From positions 1-22,216 of IMG/VR virus record IMGVR_UViG_3300025110_000147: a stretch of 22,216 nt of DNA, one strand, 5' to 3'. The stretch is from a virus. Under the pieces are notes generated by a model. That model was not told the DNA's origin, ran no database searches, and saw nothing but the letters and a program-made list of their open reading frames with translations. Position numbers and translations under genes: made by a program. Below are positions 1,377 through 17,083 of the stretch, in pieces (position 1 is the stretch's first letter; each line of letters begins with the position of its first letter).

Positions 1377-1561
1377 AACTTAGGCAATCCTGTTGTGGTG
1401 GGCATTGAAGGCATTGATTGTTTAACCAATTCAGGGATTTGACCCTTTACCTTATCCAAGATTGTATTCACAATCTTATCTTTATTCAAGTATGTAAAAG
1501 TTCCACCACCAACTGCTATTACAAGAAAAGCAGTATTTATGTAGGTAAGAACTTTTATCAT
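1373..1561 (-). CDS. Single-pass membrane miniprotein, holin-like position
   Basis: The product is 62 residues from the ATG at 1559-1561. That ATG overlaps the upstream TGA as ATGA, so I prefer it to the in-frame TTG two codons earlier at 1567. There is one hydrophobic segment at about residues 7-25 (YINTAFLVIAVGGGTFTYL), then a Lys-containing amphipathic stretch (KDKIVNTILDKVKGQIPELV) and a Pro/Ser/Thr-rich end. Size and topology resemble small single-span phage holins such as T7 gp17.5, which also sits just after the tail fibre. No holin family signature is recognisable, and I recall similar small proteins in cyanophages annotated only as hypothetical or structural. Its stop also overlaps the next start as ATGA, so it is translationally coupled on both sides. 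Confidence 0.75.
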   Translation of the reverse strand: MIKVLTYINTAFLVIAVGGGTFTYLNKDKIVNTILDKVKGQIPELVKQSMPSMPTTTGLPKL

Positions 1562-1869
1562 GCCCAAGGCTTGCCAGTTCCTGTTGTTGGAGTCTTCTGT
1601 TCGTTAACGCCTTTTTCTACAGCATCTTCGATAGCAGCGACAGTGCCTTCTTTATCAGCATCTAGTTTTGCTTTAACCCAACCAAGTACTGTTGATTCGG
1701 TAAGGTCAGCATAAGGAACAAGAGTGTCAGGCTTTGGAAGATCTACTTCACCTGTAGCTCTAAAGGAGTAAGTACCATCTTCTCCATTAACACGGTAGAT
1801 AACTTTTTTAACGTACCCATCCGCTAGTTCACGTTGAAGGGTATTTACTTGCCAGGTTTTTGTTGCCAT
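1558..1869 (-). CDS. Small conserved phage protein, probable virion accessory
   Basis: The product has 103 residues, no membrane segment and no signal peptide. The sequence looks like a compact alpha/beta domain. An N-terminal strand region (TWQVNTLQRELADGYVKKV, then VIYRVN) is followed by a DGTYSF turn and then a helix-forming half (LTESTVLGWVKAKLD). The C-terminus is a disordered Thr/Gly/Pro tail. From memory, proteins of this pattern are frequent in marine cyanophages near fibre genes and are annotated as hypothetical, so I give no function. The ATG follows the upstream TAA after one base, and the last codons overlap the next start as ATGA. No Shine-Dalgarno sequence is visible (the bases before the start read CTCCTTAAA), which suggests translational coupling. 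Confidence 0.8.
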   Translation of the reverse strand: MATKTWQVNTLQRELADGYVKKVIYRVNGEDGTYSFRATGEVDLPKPDTLVPYADLTESTVLGWVKAKLDADKEGTVAAIEDAVEKGVNEQKTPTTGTGKPWA

Positions 1870-3658: not shown

Positions 3659-5099
3659 GATTGTTAATTAGTAAAGGTGATTAAAGAGGTTAAGCACTTT
3701 CTAGTGCAGCTACTTTTGTTTCTAGTGTTTCGATTTTTGTGATTGCTTCCTTTAAGGCAGCAGTTAATAAGGGTACAACTCTTGAAGCATCAGCAGTTTG
3801 ATATACAGGATCTCCAACATTCAAATCCTCTAAAGTTGGATTATTTGCTTTACTATCAGCAGTTACAACTTCATCTTTTGTTCCGTTAACTGATTCTGGT
3901 ACAACTTCCTGTAATTCATGAGCTAAAAATCCATCTTTTGTAATACCTGAATTTAATTTAAAATTAAATCTTTTTGGTTTTAAGTTCTTTAATCTTGTTA
4001 TAGCACCAGTAAGATCAACAATATTTTCTTTTAAACGATAATCAGAAGATGTTGCGTATGTAACAGTACCATCACCATCTTGTTTGATTTCTCCAATCGC
4101 TGAAGTCCCACCAACCAAATGGAGAAGAGTATAATTAGCATAACTACTTCCACTACCTGCATGTTTAATTCTTAAATAAGGCCCAGTAGCATGTTCAGTA
4201 AATGTAAACCCCGTATTATCAGCACTAGTCATATCAGATGATAGTGCCTTTATCATTACTTTACCATCATCTAATATGTTGAAATGTGTAGAAGACCCAT
4301 TACTTACATAAAACCTATCAGCACTGCGAGAAGCACCTAATATCCAATTATGTTCTGTTCCACTACTAGATTTACCTTGAATCTTTAAGCGAGTTTCTTG
4401 GTTGTTGTTTCCTGCTAATAATTGAAGTCCTCCATCGTGAGAAGGTGAAGTTACCGTTGCTCCAGTTGAAGTTGTCTCAAAATTCTTACTGCCGTCGTAA
4501 TAGAGTTCTACGGCTCCGTTTCCAATACAATTAATTGCAGTTTCATTACCTTGAACTCTTATATTTACATCATCAGCGGCTCTAAGAATTAAATCATCAC
4601 CTGGACTTTTAGCGTCTATAATAAGATCTGTACCGGAGGTAACATGATTTATATAACTAGAATCGCCATCATGGTAGATCTGGAGATCGTCACCACTTCC
4701 AAATACCGCCTTTCCTACATAACCACTACTATGATCAGGCCAAGCTGCATGAGATGACAACTCAAGTTGACCTGTAACTTTTACCCCTGCTGAGTTGGTC
4801 TCAAACTTCTTACTGTTGTCATAGTAAAGGTTTACAGCAGCACCACCTTGGAAAACTGCACTATTTACCCAAGAACCTCCATTATAATTTTGAATATTTA
4901 AGTTTCCATCAGTTCGTGCTTGGAAACTCCATTTATCAGCATTATCATCTCCATCATCAGCTACTAATCTTAGTTCTCCTTTTTGATTTTCACCACCAAT
5001 AACTTGTAATAATGCCTCACTTGTACCATTCGTGATATTTACACCGGAATTTGTAGTCGATAACTTCTTACTTGAGTCGTAAAACAAATCTACGGCTCC
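3196..5099 (-). repeat. Dispersed 10-mer in fibre modules of both fibre genes
   Basis: The plus-strand 10-mer CTACGGCTCC occurs at 3196-3205 and 3424-3433 in the second fibre gene, and at 4508-4517 and 5090-5099 in the first. In each case it encodes the Gly-Ala-Val-(Glu or Asp) core of a GAVELY-type module, in the same frame and with the same codons. The flanks diverge more. The coordinates span all four copies; the DNA between them is not itself a repeat. Confidence 0.7.
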
Positions 5100-7346
5100 G
5101 TTATTATTAAGAGCAATATGATTAACTACAGTGCCAGAATTATTCCCTTGTAGATAAAGACTACCAGTTAAGTTTTTGATATAACCATGATCGGAATTAA
5201 TTTGGTGCCAGATTTGGAGATCTGACCCTGTTCCAAATAGAGCTTTCTTGTTATCTAACCATTTAACGTCTGCATCTAAATCTTCTATATGTTCAGCACC
5301 TACTGCATCGTCTGCAATCTTAGCTCCAGTAACAGCATCAGTAGCTATCTTATCAGTATTTACTGCTAGGTTTTGTATCTTAGCTGTGCTTACTGTGTTA
5401 TCACTTGGCGTACCAATACTTACTGCTGATCCTTGCGTGGTGATAAAGTAATCAGCACCAGAAGGAGGGGCAGCAGAGAAAATGATATCGTTGCCAGAAA
5501 CTGCAAATCCCTCAGAGGGTTGTGATGATCCAGCATTAGGTTTTTGAATGACTCCGTTAACGCTAACTATTAATTGTTGAGCAGATGTAGGAGGACTACT
5601 TAAGACAAATCTGTATGCAGTACCGTTAAAGGTTGCACTACCACCACCTGTATTACCTGAACTAGATAAGGTATTAATAAAGAAGTCACCAACTGTTGCT
5701 ACGTCATCCCAAGATGAACCAGTGGCGTTATACACCTTCATCTTGTCATTAGTAGTGTCAAACCAAAGATCTCCATCATCTAATGATGAGGAAGGTGCAG
5801 AGGCAGCTACTCTATATCTATTATTAAAGTCATTTATATCGTCACTAAGACTCTTGATATCTGATTCTTTTCCTAACAGTTTATGGTAGGTATAGGTATT
5901 ACTTGAGCCAGTAGAACTGACAAGTAGACCCATATTATCTGTCAACGTGGTGCTATATAACGTTGATGGGAATCCATTAATCGTTACGTTATCACTACCA
6001 TTACCAGAGGTTCTAGCAGTTGTAGATACACCACTACCATTAACAACTATCCCACCAGCATCAGCAATACTTATTACGACACCAGACTGAGGTTGTGTAG
6101 TAGGAAAGCTATCTTCATTACTTATTACTTCTAGGCCACCTAAAGGGGCAATCTGAGCAGCAACATAGTCAACAACGGCTCCACTTGTAGGGTAGGAGCT
6201 ATCAGTATCAGAGATGGTTGTTTGTACAGACTTACCATCACATACTGTATTTATTTCAGCATTAGTAGCAGTAAGAGCTGTACTACTTGCAAGTATTGAA
6301 GCAGTAGCTGACTGCATACCAGCAAGCGTAGTTAACTCAGCATCAGCTATTTCAGAAGTTGTAACTGAGTTAGGTGCTAGGTGTGAAGCATCTAATGGAG
6401 ATCCAGCAATAAGATTTTTAATCTCAGTTATCGTTTGATCTGCTGTAGCTCCAGATTCAACACTATTTAATTTCGTATGATCAGCGTCGGTAAATACATT
6501 AGAATCACTAGCTGCTTCTACTGCTGCTCTTATTTCTGCATTAGTCTGATCAGCCGTTGCACCTGCTTCTATAGCGTTTAGCTTTGAATGGTCAGCGTCA
6601 GTAAAGACATTAGAATCTGTAGCAGCTTCTACAGCAGTTCTAATCTCAGCATTTGTTTGATCTGCTGTTGCACCAGTTTCAATACCATCTAATTTTGCAC
6701 CATCTACAGAAACATCTCTGCCATCAACTGTTCCTGTGGTAGCAATGTTTTGTGATCCAAAGTTAGGACTTATCTTCGTTCCATCTATGGCTGCACTTGC
6801 GTTTACATCTGCGTTAACAAGTGTTCCATCTTGGATCTGAGCAGAAGTAAATACCTTTGTATCGACATAGTTCTTAGTTGCTGCATCTTGTGCTGCTGTT
6901 GGATCTGCAACTTTAGTCAGTCTTAAATTACCAGCACTAGATTCTCCCATTGAAGGAAGACCAGTAGCTTCATCAACACTGACTGTTTTACCTTGGTTAT
7001 CTTTTAGTTCCTGGTCAATATATAAACTCTGTAAAGAACTTGTATCCAAGTCATTAGCAGTAAGGGTTGAACCATCTGCATAATCGACAAGAGGAGTTCC
7101 TAGTGATGAGTTTCTTCTTACTTCTACTCTTAAGTTTGCTGACGCTATACCTGTATTAAGTCGTATAAGTTTAGGGGATACGTTAGTTATTACTTGGTAT
7201 TGGGCAGATCCTGATCCTTGAGTGATCTTGTTGTAGTTGAGGAAAACCTCAATGTGCTCTTCTTTGATGTAAGGGAAGGTGAACTGAAAGTCAGTAGTAC
7301 CCTGTGCTGACGAAGAATTTACTATGTACGATGCTGTGTAACTCAT
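3690..7346 (-). CDS. 17: Tail fibre protein (T7 gp17-like) with C-terminal S74 chaperone
   Basis: This 1218-residue host-recognition fibre has several parts. Residues 1 to about 150 resemble the T7 gp17 N-terminal tail-attachment domain (FQFTFPYIKEEHIEVFLN and DYADGSTLTANDLD). A 37-residue repeat containing GATADQTNAEI follows at about 219-310. A shaft carries helix-like pseudo-repeats (AKIQNLAVNTDKI, DAVTGAKIADDAV), a DGDLWFDTTNDKMKVY element and several DLQIYHDG and GAVELYYD modules from about residue 700. The C-terminal 118 residues form a peptidase S74 intramolecular chaperone, with SSDYRLKEN at 1100-1108, FLAHELQEVVPE, and a closing coiled coil. S74 domains trimerise the fibre and then cut themselves off. 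The gene starts 3 nt after the gp16 stop. It is much longer than T7 gp17 (553 aa), as is common in marine phages. Confidence 0.95.
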   Translation of the reverse strand: MSYTASYIVNSSSAQGTTDFQFTFPYIKEEHIEVFLNYNKITQGSGSAQYQVITNVSPKLIRLNTGIASANLRVEVRRNSSLGTPLVDYADGSTLTANDLDTSSLQSLYIDQELKDNQGKTVSVDEATGLPSMGESSAGNLRLTKVADPTAAQDAATKNYVDTKVFTSAQIQDGTLVNADVNASAAIDGTKISPNFGSQNIATTGTVDGRDVSVDGAKLDGIETGATADQTNAEIRTAVEAATDSNVFTDADHSKLNAIEAGATADQTNAEIRAAVEAASDSNVFTDADHTKLNSVESGATADQTITEIKNLIAGSPLDASHLAPNSVTTSEIADAELTTLAGMQSATASILASSTALTATNAEINTVCDGKSVQTTISDTDSSYPTSGAVVDYVAAQIAPLGGLEVISNEDSFPTTQPQSGVVISIADAGGIVVNGSGVSTTARTSGNGSDNVTINGFPSTLYSTTLTDNMGLLVSSTGSSNTYTYHKLLGKESDIKSLSDDINDFNNRYRVAASAPSSSLDDGDLWFDTTNDKMKVYNATGSSWDDVATVGDFFINTLSSSGNTGGGSATFNGTAYRFVLSSPPTSAQQLIVSVNGVIQKPNAGSSQPSEGFAVSGNDIIFSAAPPSGADYFITTQGSAVSIGTPSDNTVSTAKIQNLAVNTDKIATDAVTGAKIADDAVGAEHIEDLDADVKWLDNKKALFGTGSDLQIWHQINSDHGYIKNLTGSLYLQGNNSGTVVNHIALNNNGAVDLFYDSSKKLSTTNSGVNITNGTSEALLQVIGGENQKGELRLVADDGDDNADKWSFQARTDGNLNIQNYNGGSWVNSAVFQGGAAVNLYYDNSKKFETNSAGVKVTGQLELSSHAAWPDHSSGYVGKAVFGSGDDLQIYHDGDSSYINHVTSGTDLIIDAKSPGDDLILRAADDVNIRVQGNETAINCIGNGAVELYYDGSKNFETTSTGATVTSPSHDGGLQLLAGNNNQETRLKIQGKSSSGTEHNWILGASRSADRFYVSNGSSTHFNILDDGKVMIKALSSDMTSADNTGFTFTEHATGPYLRIKHAGSGSSYANYTLLHLVGGTSAIGEIKQDGDGTVTYATSSDYRLKENIVDLTGAITRLKNLKPKRFNFKLNSGITKDGFLAHELQEVVPESVNGTKDEVVTADSKANNPTLEDLNVGDPVYQTADASRVVPLLTAALKEAITKIETLETKVAALESA
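4044..4049 (-). other. Predicted S74 self-cleavage site in tail fibre
   Basis: The codons for Ser1100 and Ser1101 lie in the motif SSDYRLK. In the endosialidase-type S74 family, cleavage occurs just before a Ser that is followed by Asp, with a Lys five residues further on as the partner of the catalytic dyad. Ser1101 and Lys1106 fit that spacing. Cleavage would release about 118 residues. This is family knowledge applied to a motif seen here. Confidence 0.75.
6437..6690 (-). repeat. Three copies of a 111-bp (37-aa) repeat in tail fibre
   Basis: The unit includes GATADQTNAEIRAAVEAA and then SDSNVFTDADH and KLN. Equivalent bases start at 6659, 6548 and 6437, a constant spacing of 111 bp. The third copy diverges after ADQTITEIK. 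The DNA copies differ mainly at third codon positions, so the array is under protein-level selection. It probably forms a rigid, regularly spaced trimeric shaft segment. Confidence 0.85.
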
Positions 7347-7349
7347 GGC

Positions 7350-10300
7350 TTAGTAGTTGACTTTCTGGTTAAATTCTGACGTATTCCCTCCATTCTGCCT
7401 TATTTCGTCTGGATGTGGATCACCAAGTTTGTATAATTCATTGGCACGTTCTTCCCTCCTTTGTTTCTGTTCTTCAATTAATACCTCTAAACGATAAGGA
7501 TTACTAGGGTCTGCTGTAAATAATGTTTTAGCTCTTCTCTTATAGTCTTCAATAATTGTATTAAGGACTGAAGCCCTTGGAGATTCAGAAAGAGATCTTC
7601 CTACGTTAGGTAAGTTTGGATTTTGATAGTCAGGAGAACTCATTCTATGGAACAAGGCATCGACTAAAATCATATTTCCGTATTCAGGATGAGGTTCTTT
7701 TGCTATGTAATCTTTGTATCTGTTATATGCGTCTGTACTAAGTGTTACTCCTTTTTGGAGATCACTAGGTCTAGGTGGCCCCCATATTGCACCGTACCCA
7801 GATAGTCTTAGCATCTCTTCCATTACATAATTATTCTTACCTTCTTGGCTATAACCTCTCTTTGCCATTGAAGGATCTAACATTGCAGGAATAGCAGTTA
7901 ACACAAAAGAAGAACTCATTCTTGCTAGCCAAGGAGCATCATCTGTTGGCATATATTCATCGCCTAAGAAGCCTGCATTTAAGTAAGGTTCTTGAGTTAT
8001 CCAATTAGTTCTAGGTGGCAGTGATTCTGACCAGCCAGGTGTAGCATTTTTAAATTCATTTAATAACTGATCTCCAAAATTTAAGAAAGCATTGTCTGTA
8101 CCTATCAAGTCATAATTCATATTCAGTCCTGTATCTTCATTAAAGAAAGTATTTTCTCCTTCTGGATTAATAATTGGTCTTTCTCCACCAGCAGGAATAA
8201 CTCTTTTCTTTGTATCAAAAGCCTGTCTGATCGTTCTTAAATGAGAAGATCTAGGCATCCAACTCAGAAGGAATCTTTGAACACCTCTAGCTAGACGACT
8301 TCTTTCACCTGGTTCTGGTGCAATCCTTCCATAACCACTACCAGCCATTCCCATTACTGTATCTAAGAAACTTGCAATCCCTTGGTAGTAGATAGATCTA
8401 TATCTTCCTGCTAAAACTCTTGATCCTAATTGAACAACTAAACCTGCACCTAGATTCTTTCTGTCGTCTTCTGTCAACATGTGTGAGAGTTCATTGTAAT
8501 CAGCTAATCCTGCAATTAATGTTGCTGCTGGTTCAAAAGCTCTGTAAGAATTCCATCTTCCATACTGTCGAACTCCGTTCTCATCAAACCATCTCATTCT
8601 CCATGACATAGGTTCACGACCTGTCCTCTTCCATTTGTCAAAAGCGAGAGGATTTAATGGCCCTGCTCCTGTAAATTCAATAGGAGAGTTTTCATTGTTA
8701 AATATAAATCCATTAAGCAATCCTATTGTTGTTGCACCTGTTGCAACTTCTGCTTTCCAATGTTTTGCAATATAACTATTTTCATCAAATATATCTCTGT
8801 AAAAACTATCAACAGTCAAGTTCCCACCAGGGATCATCCTGATTGCTTGTTTAGTAATATCACCAGGACTTCTATTGAAAGGTTGAATAGTTGTAGCAAT
8901 ATATCCATGTTTCATGTTTTGGAAACGACCCCATAAACTTGGAACAAGTGACCAGGTTATTGTTGTTCTAGGAGTCCAATCACCTTCAGCAGGTAATGTT
9001 TTATTCCCAAACCTCATTATTTCACTATATTTAGAAGCTAACTTGTTTGGTATTTGTTTTCCTTCTTTATAGCTTTGTGCGAATTCATTAATAGCATCAA
9101 AGTCTTTAGGGTCGATTCCACTTTCTATCGCTAAGTCTTGTCCATAAGAGAAAGTTCTTTTACCCATTTTGGCTCTTATATCATCTGTAAAAGTAAGCAT
9201 CCGACCTATTTGAATAGCTGCTGGATGTTTCATTACTGCATCTGCAATCGTTTCTCCATTTACAACGGCTGAACTCTTAAAGAAATTAACTTTTGCTTGT
9301 GCCCATTTTCCTGCGTAGTTATAAGCATCAATTCCTTTTAATCCTTCTTTTCCTGCTTGACTTAGACCTTCTTCAAATCCAACAGTATAAAGCAAACTAT
9401 TTCCTACTAATGCCTTTTGGAAAGTTTCAATACTTCCTTGTCCTCTTAGATCAAAAGTATTAACTCTCCAAGCCCAGTCAAGAGCAGTAGCAGGAGAACT
9501 CTTATCTATTTCTTTAGATAAAGGGAAAGTATTTAAGTCAAAAGCTCTTGCATTATTGCTTTGTTTCTTTCCTGCTTCTGAAAGTTGATGGGCTTTATCA
9601 ACTTCTTTGTAATTGTTTAAATCCCAAGCAGAAGATCTTCGGCCTGGATCGTAAAGAGTTTGTCCTAATTGGAATGATTTTGTTGCAAGTTTTAAAGCAC
9701 CATAAGCTTCGACTACATATCTTTGATACATCAATGCAGCCATTGGTATTTTATTTAATTTTGGTTTACGACTAAATACATCAACTCCTGCATAAACAAC
9801 AGGTTCTAAAGACATTCTTGCAATAGGTACTCCTGCTTGAACTGCCCATGTAAAAGGAGCAGTTAATAGTTGTGCAACTCTATAAGTTGTTAAAGTCCTT
9901 CCAATTTTTTCAAGGCTTAATTTCGGAGTTTCTTTGAGTTCTTCAACTATTATCTCTCCTGGTTTTTTTGTTCCTCCATCAACAGGGCTAGGGCCATCCA
10001 TTAAATCAGTCAATGCAATAACACCATCAGGGCCATCAGCATCAGCAGCAACTATTGCTATTTGATTTAATCCAGACTTTGCTTCAGGTGTCCAATTTCT
10101 TGTTCTCATTGCCTCTTGTACTGCTGGAGGGAAGTTCTCAAATACATCCATATCTATTTCAACTATCTCTGTCATATCCATTTTGATATTTGGAGTTGGT
10201 TCATTTGTTAATTTGATTCCTTGTAAGTCTGGTAACTGTGCCTGTGTTGTTGCTAATAATTGACCTGTTGCTCTAGTAATTGTTTGATATAACTTGACCA

Positions 10301-13300
10301 TCCTTACGGCTGCTGAGATGCTCGCTTCTAGTTCTGAAGCTGCTTGTTGATAATTAATAGTGTTAATGTTTGCTTCGTTTAATACTCTTTGAGCAGCTTT
10401 TGCTGTCTCTTGACTTGTTAATTGAACACCAATTCTAAGCTTTAAAAGGTTCTTAACATTGGTTACATTGTCTGCAAGTTTCCTTGCAAGTCCTTTATTC
10501 AAGTCAAAAATATCTTCTGCATTAACACCAAAACGTGCAGCATCTTCTATTGCTTCACTTAAAAGTTCTTGAGTATTTACAGAAGGAAGACCTGTTGAAA
10601 TAATACGGTCTAATCTATGACTAATTGCATCCCATAATATTTGTATCTCAGGAACTTCTGGCCCGTAAATCTTCTTACCAGTTGGACTTTTAACAGCCAT
10701 AACATCATCCCATAGAGATGAATCTGTAATCTTTAATTCTCCTCTTCTCCAAGCATCAAGAGCTTTTAAGAAGTCTTCTTTAAGCCCTTCTTTCTCTCCA
10801 GTAGTTGCTTCCCATCTGGAAACTCCTGGTTCATTTATCTTTTGTCTTTTAGTTTCTTCTACTAATTGTTCATCTCTTATTTCATTTTCAACTTTTGTCG
10901 TTTCAGTTTTATCTATTAATTGTTGATCTTGAATCTCATCAATTTGTTTTTTTAGTTCTGTTGCTTTTTTATTCCAATTTCTATTTTTAATTGCTTCTTT
11001 TGTTAACTTTCTTTTGCCATTAACAGTAATATAAGACTTACCTTTTTCTGGTTTTGGTGGTTCTGGCCCTAAAGCTTCTAATTCAGATTTCAAATTTTTA
11101 AGATCTGTCTCTCTTTGCTGTCTAAGAAATTGATCTTCGGGATCTAATTTTGCTTTTGTATCACTGAATCGTTCAGCAAATGCGAAAGGATCATCCATAA
11201 TCTCTCGACCTTTCGCTCTTGCTCTAGCAACACTTAACTGCATTTGTACTCTGCTTATATTACGTTGCACTTCATTTGCTTTTGTCCAATCAAGAGAATG
11301 ATCTCTAACCATCTTGATATTTCTTTGCTTTAGAAAATCGTTAAATATTTTCTTAGTTCTTGGCCCACCTAAAGAAGCATGAACACTAGCCCATAAGTCT
11401 TGGAAGAAGACACCAATTCTATATATAAGACTTTGAAAACTATCGGTAATTATAAAGTCACTACCTTTTGTAACTCCTTTGTAATTTTGTCTTAAACCTT
11501 CTTCTAATTTAGCAAAGAACGCATCAGTTAAGTTTTCAGCAAAGTATTCATCAACATCGACATATCTATAATTAGCCTCAGTATATTTTTTATTTCTAAA
11601 GGCTTTTAGTTCCTCTGCACTTGCTTTCTTTTGCCATTTTGCTTTCGCTTTTTTAAATTCTTTTTTATATCTAATTAAGTCTTTTTCAGGCAAGTACCTA
11701 GATAAAGAGTGCCATAATTCATGTACTAATGTTCTAGGTAATTCACCTTCTTTAATAATATTTTTTCTTATTTCAAGCAGGCTATTTGCAAAATTAAAAC
11801 GACCCATTGCACCTATTTTATTTGTAATACTTAAGGCGACATCATCAAACATTTGTCGGCCTATTGTATTCATAAAATCTTTTATGAGTTCAACGTCATC
11901 AGGATCTATATCTTTAACAGGGTATTTATCTCCTAATCGTTTTAATAATTTATCTGCACCTCTGTATTGTGATAAACCTCTACCACCTTCTTCTATCGTT
12001 TTAAATGGTTTAGCTTTCCGTCTAGCAGCATAATTAATAATTTCTTCGTAGGAAGAACCAAAAGAAACCTTTTCTAAAATCTCATCATCTAAAGGAATAT
12101 CGCCACGTTCTATTCCTCTAGTAATTTCTAGTGTCTTTTCATCAAGTTCTTCTAATAATCTTTTATCTTCTGCTTCTTTCGCTAGGGTTTCTTCTTCTAA
12201 TTTTCTAGCAACTGCCTGTACTCTTTCTTCTGAAACAGGTTTACCTTGTGAATCAACCCATCCAATGTCATCACCTTTCCAAGTAAACCCTTCTTCTAAA
12301 TCCAAAGCTTCATCTATGCCAGTCCATTCACCTTCATCAGCTAAACGTCCTTTGTAACCATCTACTTGGTATGCAGATTTTTTTAAAACACCGTATGCGT
12401 TAGCACTAGGTTTAACAGGCTTATTAGTTTTTAAACTCCTCCATTCAATATTAGGATCTTCGCCTAACCATTTAGCAAACAGTCTTCGTCTTTTAGGATC
12501 AGAACCTTCTAATCTATATTCACCAGGCGGTAAATAATCATAAACTTCTTCAAAGCTTCGCCTCATTAATAAAGTTCTTTTCGTTGGCCCTAGTGATGGA
12601 ATATCACTTTCTTTGATTCCTAATTGAGCAAGTTGTTCATCACCTAAATCTTCTAATCTTTGAATGTGAATTTCATTGTAAGTACCTAAATCTTCAGTAC
12701 CAGCAGCAATTCGTCTTGCATCTACAGGGTTTGATTGCTCTACAATGACTGATCCCCATTCAGCTTGATCTATATCTAAATCTTGAGGGTCGATTGTTCT
12801 TCTTACTTGCTCAATAAATTTGACAGCATCATCAGTAAAAGATGAACCGTAGCGTTCTTTGATGCTTCTACCTTGTAATGTTCTTGCTTTCTCCCATAGC
12901 TCTTGTCTCTTGGCTGGTGGAATGTGAGCCATTGATTTATCAAAGGCTGCCCTATCAAGTCTTGTTTGTACTCTTTGGAAACTAGGTTCTGTTGCTAATT
13001 CATCAGCGACAGTTTCAATCTGTTGTTGCTTGGCAACGTATTCTTTTGTTCCAGGTTCTAAATTTGCAAGATCTTCTATTAACCATTTACCTCTTATGCC
13101 TTTAAGAATCGCACCAATTCCAAAATCTATTCCCCATCCTTCAAGCATATTTTTTAATCGACCTTGTAATCCTTTGTCGTTAGGGTTGCTCTTTAAATCT
13201 TGGACTAAAGGAATAGTTTCCAGCCAACTGAAATAAGGAGTATTAGTAGCAAGATCAAAGAGGCGACCTTCGTATTGGTCAAAACCAGCAAAGTCAACAA

Positions 13301-13952
13301 TTAAACCTTTTGGATTAAGAGTCGCATTAGTTGCTGCACCAGCACCAAAACCAACAAGACTACCTACTTTTTGAGCTTTCCTTCCTCCTCCTAATGTTTT
13401 AGCAACTGTTGTTGCAGTACCTGTTTGTATTGCTTTCTCTATCTTTTTTGCTTTTTGAGTTGCAGTTGCTATCCCTGTTCCAAGCTTAGTTCCTTTAAGA
13501 CCAAGGTTTGCAACCTTCAAGGCTTTACTAAGAGTTACCCATTCAAGTCCAAACTGAAGAACTCCTGTTACAAAATCTTCAACACCACCACTACTTTTAA
13601 GCTTTTGAGGTTTCCATCCTCCCATTCCAATAATGGGTTTATCTGGTTCTTCTGCTGTAGTTCCTTCTCCTACTCCAAAGTAACCACCTATATCTCTAAT
13701 AGTGTCGCTTCCTTCTTGCAGAGCATTTATCCCTGCATTTATAACCATGCGAGGAGGGAGTGATTTATTTAATAGAGGTAGTTTTTGTAGTTGATCTCCC
13801 TCTAAAGTATTCCTAATTGAATCGACAAATGAAGTTTTCTTAGTTGGTTGAACTTCTTTTTTCTGTTCTTTCTTTGGTTCCTTTTCTTCGTATTCCTTGT
13901 ATTCAAGCTTCTGTTCACCTGTTTCAGGATCTGTAACGTAAATAATTGGCAT
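7350..13952 (-). CDS. 16: Giant internal virion (ejection) protein, gp16-like, with HExxH motif
   Basis: This 2200-residue protein occupies the gp16 slot between gp15 and the tail fibre. T7 gp16 has 1318 residues and is ejected into the cell envelope to help form the DNA-translocation channel. The N-terminus is charged and Lys/Glu-rich. Gly/Ala-rich amphipathic helices follow at about 110-320, typical of ejection proteins. An unidentified compact region lies at about 430-530 (YNEIHIQRLEDLG, PPGEYRLEG). A zincin-like segment has HELWH at 744-748 and EYFAEN with Glu806. A highly charged helical region lies at about 930-1130. The second half is long, helical and Trp/aromatic-rich, with many short conserved-looking motifs. 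I see no transglycosylase motif (catalytic Glu followed by a GLMQ-type element) at the N-terminus. The start ATG lies 35 nt after the gp15 stop, and no Shine-Dalgarno sequence is visible. The gp16 call rests on position, size rank and composition. Confidence 0.88.
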   Translation of the reverse strand: MPIIYVTDPETGEQKLEYKEYEEKEPKKEQKKEVQPTKKTSFVDSIRNTLEGDQLQKLPLLNKSLPPRMVINAGINALQEGSDTIRDIGGYFGVGEGTTAEEPDKPIIGMGGWKPQKLKSSGGVEDFVTGVLQFGLEWVTLSKALKVANLGLKGTKLGTGIATATQKAKKIEKAIQTGTATTVAKTLGGGRKAQKVGSLVGFGAGAATNATLNPKGLIVDFAGFDQYEGRLFDLATNTPYFSWLETIPLVQDLKSNPNDKGLQGRLKNMLEGWGIDFGIGAILKGIRGKWLIEDLANLEPGTKEYVAKQQQIETVADELATEPSFQRVQTRLDRAAFDKSMAHIPPAKRQELWEKARTLQGRSIKERYGSSFTDDAVKFIEQVRRTIDPQDLDIDQAEWGSVIVEQSNPVDARRIAAGTEDLGTYNEIHIQRLEDLGDEQLAQLGIKESDIPSLGPTKRTLLMRRSFEEVYDYLPPGEYRLEGSDPKRRRLFAKWLGEDPNIEWRSLKTNKPVKPSANAYGVLKKSAYQVDGYKGRLADEGEWTGIDEALDLEEGFTWKGDDIGWVDSQGKPVSEERVQAVARKLEEETLAKEAEDKRLLEELDEKTLEITRGIERGDIPLDDEILEKVSFGSSYEEIINYAARRKAKPFKTIEEGGRGLSQYRGADKLLKRLGDKYPVKDIDPDDVELIKDFMNTIGRQMFDDVALSITNKIGAMGRFNFANSLLEIRKNIIKEGELPRTLVHELWHSLSRYLPEKDLIRYKKEFKKAKAKWQKKASAEELKAFRNKKYTEANYRYVDVDEYFAENLTDAFFAKLEEGLRQNYKGVTKGSDFIITDSFQSLIYRIGVFFQDLWASVHASLGGPRTKKIFNDFLKQRNIKMVRDHSLDWTKANEVQRNISRVQMQLSVARARAKGREIMDDPFAFAERFSDTKAKLDPEDQFLRQQRETDLKNLKSELEALGPEPPKPEKGKSYITVNGKRKLTKEAIKNRNWNKKATELKKQIDEIQDQQLIDKTETTKVENEIRDEQLVEETKRQKINEPGVSRWEATTGEKEGLKEDFLKALDAWRRGELKITDSSLWDDVMAVKSPTGKKIYGPEVPEIQILWDAISHRLDRIISTGLPSVNTQELLSEAIEDAARFGVNAEDIFDLNKGLARKLADNVTNVKNLLKLRIGVQLTSQETAKAAQRVLNEANINTINYQQAASELEASISAAVRMVKLYQTITRATGQLLATTQAQLPDLQGIKLTNEPTPNIKMDMTEIVEIDMDVFENFPPAVQEAMRTRNWTPEAKSGLNQIAIVAADADGPDGVIALTDLMDGPSPVDGGTKKPGEIIVEELKETPKLSLEKIGRTLTTYRVAQLLTAPFTWAVQAGVPIARMSLEPVVYAGVDVFSRKPKLNKIPMAALMYQRYVVEAYGALKLATKSFQLGQTLYDPGRRSSAWDLNNYKEVDKAHQLSEAGKKQSNNARAFDLNTFPLSKEIDKSSPATALDWAWRVNTFDLRGQGSIETFQKALVGNSLLYTVGFEEGLSQAGKEGLKGIDAYNYAGKWAQAKVNFFKSSAVVNGETIADAVMKHPAAIQIGRMLTFTDDIRAKMGKRTFSYGQDLAIESGIDPKDFDAINEFAQSYKEGKQIPNKLASKYSEIMRFGNKTLPAEGDWTPRTTITWSLVPSLWGRFQNMKHGYIATTIQPFNRSPGDITKQAIRMIPGGNLTVDSFYRDIFDENSYIAKHWKAEVATGATTIGLLNGFIFNNENSPIEFTGAGPLNPLAFDKWKRTGREPMSWRMRWFDENGVRQYGRWNSYRAFEPAATLIAGLADYNELSHMLTEDDRKNLGAGLVVQLGSRVLAGRYRSIYYQGIASFLDTVMGMAGSGYGRIAPEPGERSRLARGVQRFLLSWMPRSSHLRTIRQAFDTKKRVIPAGGERPIINPEGENTFFNEDTGLNMNYDLIGTDNAFLNFGDQLLNEFKNATPGWSESLPPRTNWITQEPYLNAGFLGDEYMPTDDAPWLARMSSSFVLTAIPAMLDPSMAKRGYSQEGKNNYVMEEMLRLSGYGAIWGPPRPSDLQKGVTLSTDAYNRYKDYIAKEPHPEYGNMILVDALFHRMSSPDYQNPNLPNVGRSLSESPRASVLNTIIEDYKRRAKTLFTADPSNPYRLEVLIEEQKQRREERANELYKLGDPHPDEIRQNGGNTSEFNQKVNY
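11535..11723 (-). other. Metalloprotease-like active-site segment inside gp16
   Basis: On the minus strand this stretch encodes His744-Glu745-Leu-Trp-His748 through Glu806 in EYFAEN. HExxH plus a downstream Glu in an (E/D)xFAE-type helix is the zinc ligand pattern of many zincins. The residues before HELWH (GELPRTLV) and the amphipathic helix around it fit such a fold. The motif is seen; activity is inferred. Confidence 0.6.
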
Positions 13953-16381: not shown

Positions 16382-17083
16382 TTATTTTTTCCAAGGGTTT
16401 ATTTTTGTAGGATCTCCACCGCCTGCGTAAATACCAGAAGAAGTAGAGAAGCCAGCTTGTGCTCCACTTAAACCAGCATTTAATACTCCTAAGAATCCTG
16501 GCCCACTTACTTTTCCTCGTTTTATAGGTTTCATAGGATCTAATATCGTTCGTTCTAAGTATGGTTGTTGACTTGCAATTCGACTAGCCCTATCTGCACC
16601 TGCTCCTTTCTTCCGTTGTTGTATTTGTTGACCAGTAAAGGCTAGGTTCCTATTTGTTATGTAGTCAAATTGTGCTTGTTGTCGCCTCCAATCAGCAATT
16701 AAATTATTAACAGTATTGCCAACACGACCATCTGCAATAACTTCACCTCTACCTCTTAAGAAATCTTTTTGTGCTTCTCTTTTTGCTTGACCTGCTGCTG
16801 CCTGTTCTTGTTGTAACTGTAAATTTAATTGTGCTATATCATTCTCATAGGCTGTGTTAGCAAGGAAAGTATTTTGTTCGATTAAATCTTCTTGTAGTTG
16901 TTTTTGTTGTTCTTCTCCTGTTCTAGTTGCTTCTGTTTGCAACACATTATATTGATATTCCTGTTCTGCTACTTGGTTCTCAAATTCTATCTGTGCGTTC
17001 TGTGCTCTAGTCGCAGCGTTCTGCTGCATTATTGAAAGTCCTGCTGACAGGACTCCCATTATTATCGGAACGGGGCCGCACAT
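16382..17083 (-). CDS. 14: Internal virion protein, gp14-like
   Basis: The 233-residue product is near T7 gp14 in size (196 aa) and position. gp14 is a core protein ejected into the outer membrane at infection. The N-terminus has the Cys/Pro start and apolar segment typical of this family (MCGPVPIIMGVLSAGLSIMQ). A long Gln/Glu/Ala-rich coiled coil covers about residues 20-120. The C-terminus is Gly/Ser-rich, with a second apolar stretch (GFLGVLNAGLSGAQAGF) near 195-212, and ends in NPWKK. GAGG lies nine bases before the ATG, one of the few convincing ribosome sites in the window. The upstream gene stops 2 nt before the start. Confidence 0.9.
   Translation of the reverse strand: MCGPVPIIMGVLSAGLSIMQQNAATRAQNAQIEFENQVAEQEYQYNVLQTEATRTGEEQQKQLQEDLIEQNTFLANTAYENDIAQLNLQLQQEQAAAGQAKREAQKDFLRGRGEVIADGRVGNTVNNLIADWRRQQAQFDYITNRNLAFTGQQIQQRKKGAGADRASRIASQQPYLERTILDPMKPIKRGKVSGPGFLGVLNAGLSGAQAGFSTSSGIYAGGGDPTKINPWKK

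What the first reader, a model, noticed from the sequence alone, without database searches (positions are those of the whole stretch)
11535..11723. Zinc-metalloprotease-like motif embedded in a DNA-ejection protein
gp16 residues 744-748 read HELWH, and a candidate third ligand, Glu806, sits in EYFAEN 58 residues later. T7 gp16 is known for a peptidoglycan-cutting transglycosylase, not a peptidase. A protease carried in the ejected core could cut cell-wall peptides or periplasmic/host proteins, or mature the core itself. The motif is seen directly; zinc binding and activity are inferred. HExxH alone occurs by chance, but the distal Glu pattern and the helix context strengthen it.
Basis: partly seen in the sequence, partly recalled or inferred. 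Interest (0 to 1): 0.62.

Follow-up and report, generated by a model that had tools for sequence, protein, structure and literature searches.

The report
Zinc-protease domain in phage injection protein
A marine virus of bacteria carries, inside the huge protein it injects ahead of its DNA, what looks like a complete zinc-protease active site, kept unchanged in about a hundred relatives, so the first thing entering the cell probably includes a protein-cutting enzyme whose target is unknown.

Summary
The HELWH motif is real (gp16-like protein, residues 744-748) and not chance. Among 93 non-identical domain copies, every one keeps HExxH followed by Y-x6-E-[YFW]-F. In gp16 homologues collected only by their C-terminal core, all 23 whose upstream part is held have an HExxH there. 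E802 is invariant, whereas E806 is Met in one intact homologue. Tyr795, seven residues before E802, is also invariant, giving H-E-H plus Y-x6-E, the active-site signature reported for the MtfA/lethal-factor type of gluzincin. The one structure prediction was weak overall but good over residues 740-819: an HExxH helix, then a short helix at Y795, a turn and the E802 helix. Its best fold match was Klebsiella MtfA (Z 5.0, weak). Predicted zinc-protease domains in injected phage proteins are already described (Iyer 2017: N4 vRNAP, P1 DdrB). New here are this subfamily, which no Pfam, PHROG or NCBIfam model detects, and its carrier, the gp16-type ejection protein of marine T7-like phages, with a divergent version in cultured Prochlorococcus phage P-SCSP1. 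Activity and substrate are untested.

The parts
7350..13952 (-). gp16-like internal virion / ejection protein, 2200 aa (P0001), carrier of the domain
   Evidence: C-terminal core matches P-SSP7 gp16 (E 3.7e-22) and other marine internal virion proteins D; gene order gp11-gp12-gp13-gp14-gp15-gp16-gp17
11253..11906 (-). predicted gluzincin domain, about residues 683-900
   Evidence: conserved block in 83-93 homologues; boundaries inferred from conservation
11709..11723 (-). HELWH, residues 744-748: zinc ligands H744 and H748, general base E745 (roles inferred)
   Evidence: invariant HExxH
11568..11570 (-). Y795, predicted transition-state tyrosine of the Y-x6-E motif
   Evidence: invariant in 83/83 aligned and 93/93 copies; motif described for MtfA/LF
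11547..11549 (-). E802, predicted third zinc ligand
   Evidence: invariant; counterpart of E211 of E. coli MtfA by motif and by hhalign
11535..11537 (-).
   Evidence: conserved in 92/93, Met in L112
8253..9302 (-). part of the conserved C-terminal gp16 core (residues 1551-1900)
   Evidence: present in 76/76 domain-bearing ORFs longer than 1300 aa
13988..16378 (-). gp15-like gene by position; homologues beside several domain-bearing gp16s
16382..17083 (-). T7_gp14-family internal virion protein
   Evidence: Pfam PF24072, E 6.7e-15

Best explanation
Residues about 683-900 of the gp16-like ejection protein are a zinc-dependent endopeptidase domain of the gluzincin type. H744, H748 and E802 bind Zn, E745 activates the water, and Y795 stabilises the transition state, as in MtfA and lethal factor. 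The domain sits in an exchangeable middle part of gp16 between conserved N- and C-terminal parts, so it would be packaged in the internal core and ejected with gp16. It most likely acts after ejection as a protease, either on a host protein in the periplasm or cytoplasm or in cis on gp16 and its channel partners to release domains. The sequence evidence does not separate these two substrates. Shown: motif, invariance, carrier identity, gene order. Inferred: zinc, catalysis, timing, substrate.
For: All 93 non-identical copies keep HExxH...Y-x6-E-[YFW]-F. H, E, H, Y and E are 5 of only 12 invariant columns in an 85-sequence alignment. No homologue loses HExxH: the 5 hits without it all start at a contig edge. 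In a retrieval based only on the gp16 C-terminal core, all 23 proteins with the region present have an HExxH. HExxH + E + Y in a YX6E motif is the reported MtfA/lethal-factor signature (PMC6356308). E. coli MtfA reads HEVAH...Y204-x6-E211, and 3dl1 is a close MtfA homologue. The rank 1 VIA match of the model is 3dl1 (Z 5.0, 99 aa). In the confident part of the model (block pLDDT 70-97) HExxH lies in a helix, and a short helix 795-797, a turn and the E802 helix follow. hhalign aligns both HExxH and Y-x6-E with MtfA in one alignment. Pfam ATLF is a weak hit in 3 of 40 members. In 76/76 ORFs over 1300 aa the domain lies with the gp16 core.
Against: The model is poor overall (mean pLDDT 59.5, pTM 0.50) and shows no proper beta-sheet. 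The fold match is weak: Z 5.0, rmsd 6.2, below the level the tool calls informative. hhalign probability against MtfA is only 3.7%, and one of 100 shuffled profiles scored higher. No Pfam, PHROG or NCBIfam family is matched above threshold. N4 vRNAP carries an MPTase region yet is packaged unprocessed. No activity, metal or proteomic data exist.
Confidence: 0.72

Rival explanations
1. Self-processing only: the domain cleaves gp16 (or gp14/gp15) in cis during assembly or on ejection and has no host target.
For: Iyer 2017 proposes processing as a main role of MPTases in polyvalent proteins, with the P1 DdrB precedent (PMC5512222). The carrier is long, with exchangeable middle segments.
Against: No cleavage data. 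N4 vRNAP stays full length in the virion.
Confidence: 0.35
2. Host-directed effector protease: after ejection it cuts one or more host proteins (defence, transcription or envelope).
For: Gluzincins of the same signature class are known effectors. The module is variable around an invariant active site. It is present in all large gp16s with the region held.
Against: No substrate known. Gp16s of about 1200 aa in related marine phages work without it.
Confidence: 0.35
3. Cell-wall peptidase that replaces the T7 gp16 transglycosylase.
For: No muralytic Pfam domain was found in the window's gp16, gp15 or gp14.
Against: P-SSP7 and CRP-804 gp16s also show no such domain yet have no HExxH. The signature matches the protein-cutting MtfA/LF enzymes.
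Confidence: 0.08
4. Chance HExxH in a helical structural segment, or a dead structural zincin.
For: T7 gp16 has an unrelated HERLH at 559 without Y-x6-E nearby, so isolated motifs do occur. The model is poor outside 740-819.
Against: Invariance of all five catalytic positions, E745 included, across copies about 40% identical; background 0.048 per 1000 aa.
Confidence: 0.07

Closest known systems
Zincin-like MPTase domains of phage and plasmid polyvalent proteins (Iyer et al. 2017; N4 vRNAP, P1 DdrB)
   Same: HExxH helix plus distal Glu helix with variable insert between them, embedded in a large multidomain protein that enters the host
   Different: Carrier is the gp16-type ejection protein of T7-like marine phages; it has Y-x6-E, which N4 gp50 and P1 DdrB lack by my reading; no significant profile match to either
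MtfA (Mlc titration factor A, peptidase M90, PF06167)
   Same: HExxH and Y-x6-E-x-F-A; similar spacing (59 against 54 residues from second His to Glu); best fold match of the model
   Different: Free-standing bacterial protein; no PF06167 match; homology not demonstrated by profile-profile score
Lethal-factor-type gluzincins (ATLF, PF07737)
   Same: Reported HExxH + Y-x6-E signature; sub-threshold Pfam hits in 3 of 40 members
   Different: Secreted effector of an animal pathogen; not fetched or compared directly here
gp16-like protein of Prochlorococcus phage P-SCSP1
   Same: Same gp16 core and an HExxH zincin-like segment (HESFH, residue 1204)
   Different: Divergent subtype without the Y-x6-E motif; also a weak ParB-like segment; the P-SCSP1 paper could not annotate its putative internal virion genes (PMC9860041)
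T7 gp16 (internal virion protein D)
   Same: Gene position in the gp14-gp15-gp16-gp17 order
   Different: T7 gp16 has an N-terminal endolysin/transglycosylase domain and no zincin; no sequence similarity detected to the core profile

Membership tests
MtfA / lethal-factor-type gluzincin | HExxH in a helix | tested here: met
   93/93 copies; helix 740-751 in the confident part of the model
MtfA / lethal-factor-type gluzincin | Y-x6-E with catalytic Tyr and third-ligand Glu | tested here: met
   Y795-x6-E802 in 93/93; definition from PMC6356308; sequence pattern only, roles inferred
MtfA / lethal-factor-type gluzincin | 3-10 helix, turn, helix carrying the YX6E motif | tested here: inconclusive
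   model shows short helix 795-797, turn, helix 800-825, block pLDDT 93, 86 and 74 over 790-819; one model, coordinates not available
MtfA / lethal-factor-type gluzincin | overall zincin fold with beta-sheet | tested here: inconclusive
Peptidase M90 (PF06167) | match to the family profile | tested here: not met
   no match in the window record
Zincin-like MPTase of polyvalent proteins | HExxH helix followed by a Glu-bearing helix, variable insert between them | tested here: met
   H748-E802 equivalent spacing 53-155 residues; both helices in the model
Zincin-like MPTase of polyvalent proteins | N-terminal helix and three-stranded sheet | tested here: inconclusive
Zincin-like MPTase of polyvalent proteins | delivered into the host inside a large virion protein | not testable with these tools
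   inferred from gp16 identity and gene order
gp16 / internal virion protein D of T7-like phages | shared C-terminal core with named marine gp16s | tested here: met
   P-SSP7 E 3.7e-22, CRP-804 2.9e-44 and others (E-values for a database of eight proteins)
gp16 / internal virion protein D of T7-like phages | gene order gp12-gp13-gp14-gp15-gp16-gp17 | tested here: met
gp16 / internal virion protein D of T7-like phages | sequence similarity to T7 gp16 itself | tested here: not met
   no match of the core profile with hmmsearch or hhalign
Any catalytic zincin | zinc bound and peptide bond cleaved | not testable with these tools
   needs experiment

The most novel reading that the evidence does not exclude
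Marine T7-like phages carry in their ejection-channel protein an injected MtfA/lethal-factor-like protease that cuts a specific host protein in the first moments of infection, and the module around it is swapped between phages while the active site is kept.
Probability: 0.28. Interest if true: 0.8.

Novelty: new variant of a known kind. Interest (0 to 1): 0.58.

Why it matters
Ejection proteins are the first phage proteins inside the host, and those of abundant marine podoviruses are mostly unannotated; the P-SCSP1 paper could assign no function to its putative internal virion proteins (PMC9860041). A conserved protease active site there makes a testable statement about what these proteins do besides forming a channel, and a cultured phage with a related domain exists.

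Tried and rejected
Whole-protein Pfam, PHROG, NCBIfam and PDB sequence searches gave no usable family. A profile of 40 domains against PDB sequences gave only chance hits. Searches of named phages with three domain sequences gave no convincing relative (the Arthrobacter lysin hits at E 0.06 start downstream of HExxH and look like chance helical similarity). Searches with the distant copy L143 found no further relatives. The profile-profile test against MtfA alone is not significant. A blind hhalign scan of 163 tiles ranked the P-SCSP1 and N4 HExxH regions on top, but with low probabilities. E806 as third ligand was rejected because L112 has Met there. Cell-wall cutting was disfavoured because related gp16s without HExxH also lack muralytic Pfam domains. 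The presence/absence scan with a broad core alignment could not run, and a narrower one was used. The MtfA structure paper (PMC3370624) is not held; its YX6E statement is taken from a review.

Full report
WHAT IS THERE. The window is a 22.2 kb, 38% GC virus record holding the virion genes of a T7-like phage with marine relatives on the minus strand, from tail tube gp11 and gp12 through gp13, gp14, gp15 and a 2200-aa gp16-like protein to a tail fibre with the T7 gp17 N-terminal domain. Residues 744-748 of the gp16-like protein read HELWH and 802-807 read EYFAEN, exactly as reported.

NOT CHANCE. The closest relative, L001, is 88-100% identical in 50-residue bins outside residues about 350-1000 and 0-94% identical inside them, yet HELWHSLSRYLP and DEYFAENLTDAFFAK are untouched. 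A scan of viral contigs gave 42 loci, most at about 40% identity over the domain; none of its search patterns covered HELWH. A scan with the part downstream of both motifs gave further loci, and scans with the upstream half and with divergent members gave more. In 83 aligned copies H744, E745, H748, Y795, D801, E802 and F804 are invariant; W747 is Leu once; E806 is Met once (L112). In 93 non-identical copies, including the very distant L143 from a bacterial assembly, the pattern HExxH...Y-x6-E-[YFW]-F is complete, with both synonymous codons at all five positions. A profile search over 2652 ORFs gave 193 hits; the five without HExxH all begin at a contig edge.

THE ACTIVE SITE. E802 is better: it is invariant while E806 is not, and the invariant Y795 stands seven residues before it. 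A review of MtfA and lethal factor states that their catalytic residues are HExxH + E + Y, with a helix carrying HExxH followed by a 3-10-helix-turn-helix carrying a YX6E motif (PMC6356308). E. coli MtfA shows HEVAH at 148-152 and Y204-x6-E211. All five catalytic positions are among the 12 invariant columns of the 85-sequence alignment.

STRUCTURE. One AlphaFold2 run with 40 sequences gave mean pLDDT 59.5, but residues 740-819 have block means of 70-97. There HExxH lies in a helix (740-751), and Y795-Y797 form a short helix followed by a turn and the helix 800-825 that holds E802, which is the order described for MtfA/LF. No beta-sheet was formed. VIA-align ranked 3dl1 first (Z 5.0, rmsd 6.2, 99 residues); 3dl1 is Klebsiella MtfA by sequence. 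This is weak on its own and I use it only as agreement. hhalign against ten MtfA-family sequences aligned HExxH with HExxH and Y-x6-E-x-F-A with its counterpart, but scored only second against 100 column-shuffled controls. I therefore claim the active-site type, not demonstrated homology.

CARRIER. Every domain-bearing ORF longer than 1300 aa (76/76) also holds the C-terminal core shared with P-SSP7 gp16, CRP-804 and pelagiphage internal virion proteins D. Neighbours are gp12, gp13, gp14, gp15 and a tail fibre. T7 gp16 itself shows no detectable similarity to this core, so the name gp16 rests on the marine relatives and gene order. Gp16s of about 1200 aa (P-SSP7, CRP-804, HTVC041P, S-TIP28, Gjalp, ctgrD200, HTVC200P) have no HExxH. 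When proteins were collected only by their C-terminal core, 29 loci were returned. In 23 the region is held and all 23 have an HExxH: 19 of this family, three of a divergent HELWH type (L217-L219) and one HEAFH (L220). The other six are cut by a contig end, one of them (L202) keeping the Y-x6-E part. These loci were not de-duplicated and include close relatives. The cultured phage P-SCSP1i carries a divergent version, HESFH at residue 1204 of a 2563-aa protein; L217, L220 and P-SCSP1i share low but detectable similarity over this segment. Its link to the window's own subtype is weaker (E 0.004-0.013 for L217-L219 at a nominal 20,000 sequences), and the third ligand of these divergent types is not resolved.

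HOW IT PROBABLY WORKS. A zinc endopeptidase packaged in the core and ejected with gp16. After ejection it cuts either a host protein or the ejection proteins themselves. Precedent exists for both readings: Iyer et al. 2017 found zincin-like MPTases to be the commonest domain in phage and plasmid polyvalent proteins, discussed autoprocessing (P1 DdrB) and host targeting, and noted that N4 vRNAP is packaged unprocessed (PMC5512222). Cell-wall cutting is the least likely of the enzymatic options.

NOVELTY. The kind is known (MPTase in injected phage proteins). The subfamily, its MtfA/LF-type signature and the gp16 carrier were not found in the libraries or papers searched (the main text of the Iyer paper does not mention cyanophage, Pelagibacter or gp16). 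Absence from an open-access library is not proof of novelty.

Noticed in passing
window 12354-12854 (gp16 residues about 367-533): Segment of about 160 aa missing from the otherwise near-identical relative L001 and with hardly any detected homologue in the other fetched loci; the middle of gp16 is a hot spot of exchange.
   Followed up: partly
L178:1793-9481 (P-SCSP1i, residues 502-617): Weak ParB-like match (TIGR00180, E 0.0042, below cut-off) in the gp16-like protein of a cultured Prochlorococcus phage; the segment is shared with L220. With the zincin this looks like a polyvalent protein.
   Followed up: partly
L143:3954-6854: Distant copy of the domain in a 967-aa ORF of a bacterial metagenome-assembled contig, without neighbouring phage virion genes detected.
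   Followed up: partly
L112:8110-13173: Intact 1688-aa homologue with Met in place of E806 and Glu in place of D810, a natural test of which Glu is the ligand.
   Followed up: yes
window 3690-7346 (-): Tail fibre with T7 gp17 N-terminal domain, repeated TNAEIR...ADHxKLNxIExGATADQT-like units and a C-terminal S74 chaperone-type peptidase domain.
   Followed up: no
window 1558-1869 (-): Small protein matching DUF7936 (E 1.9e-29), function unknown.
   Followed up: no
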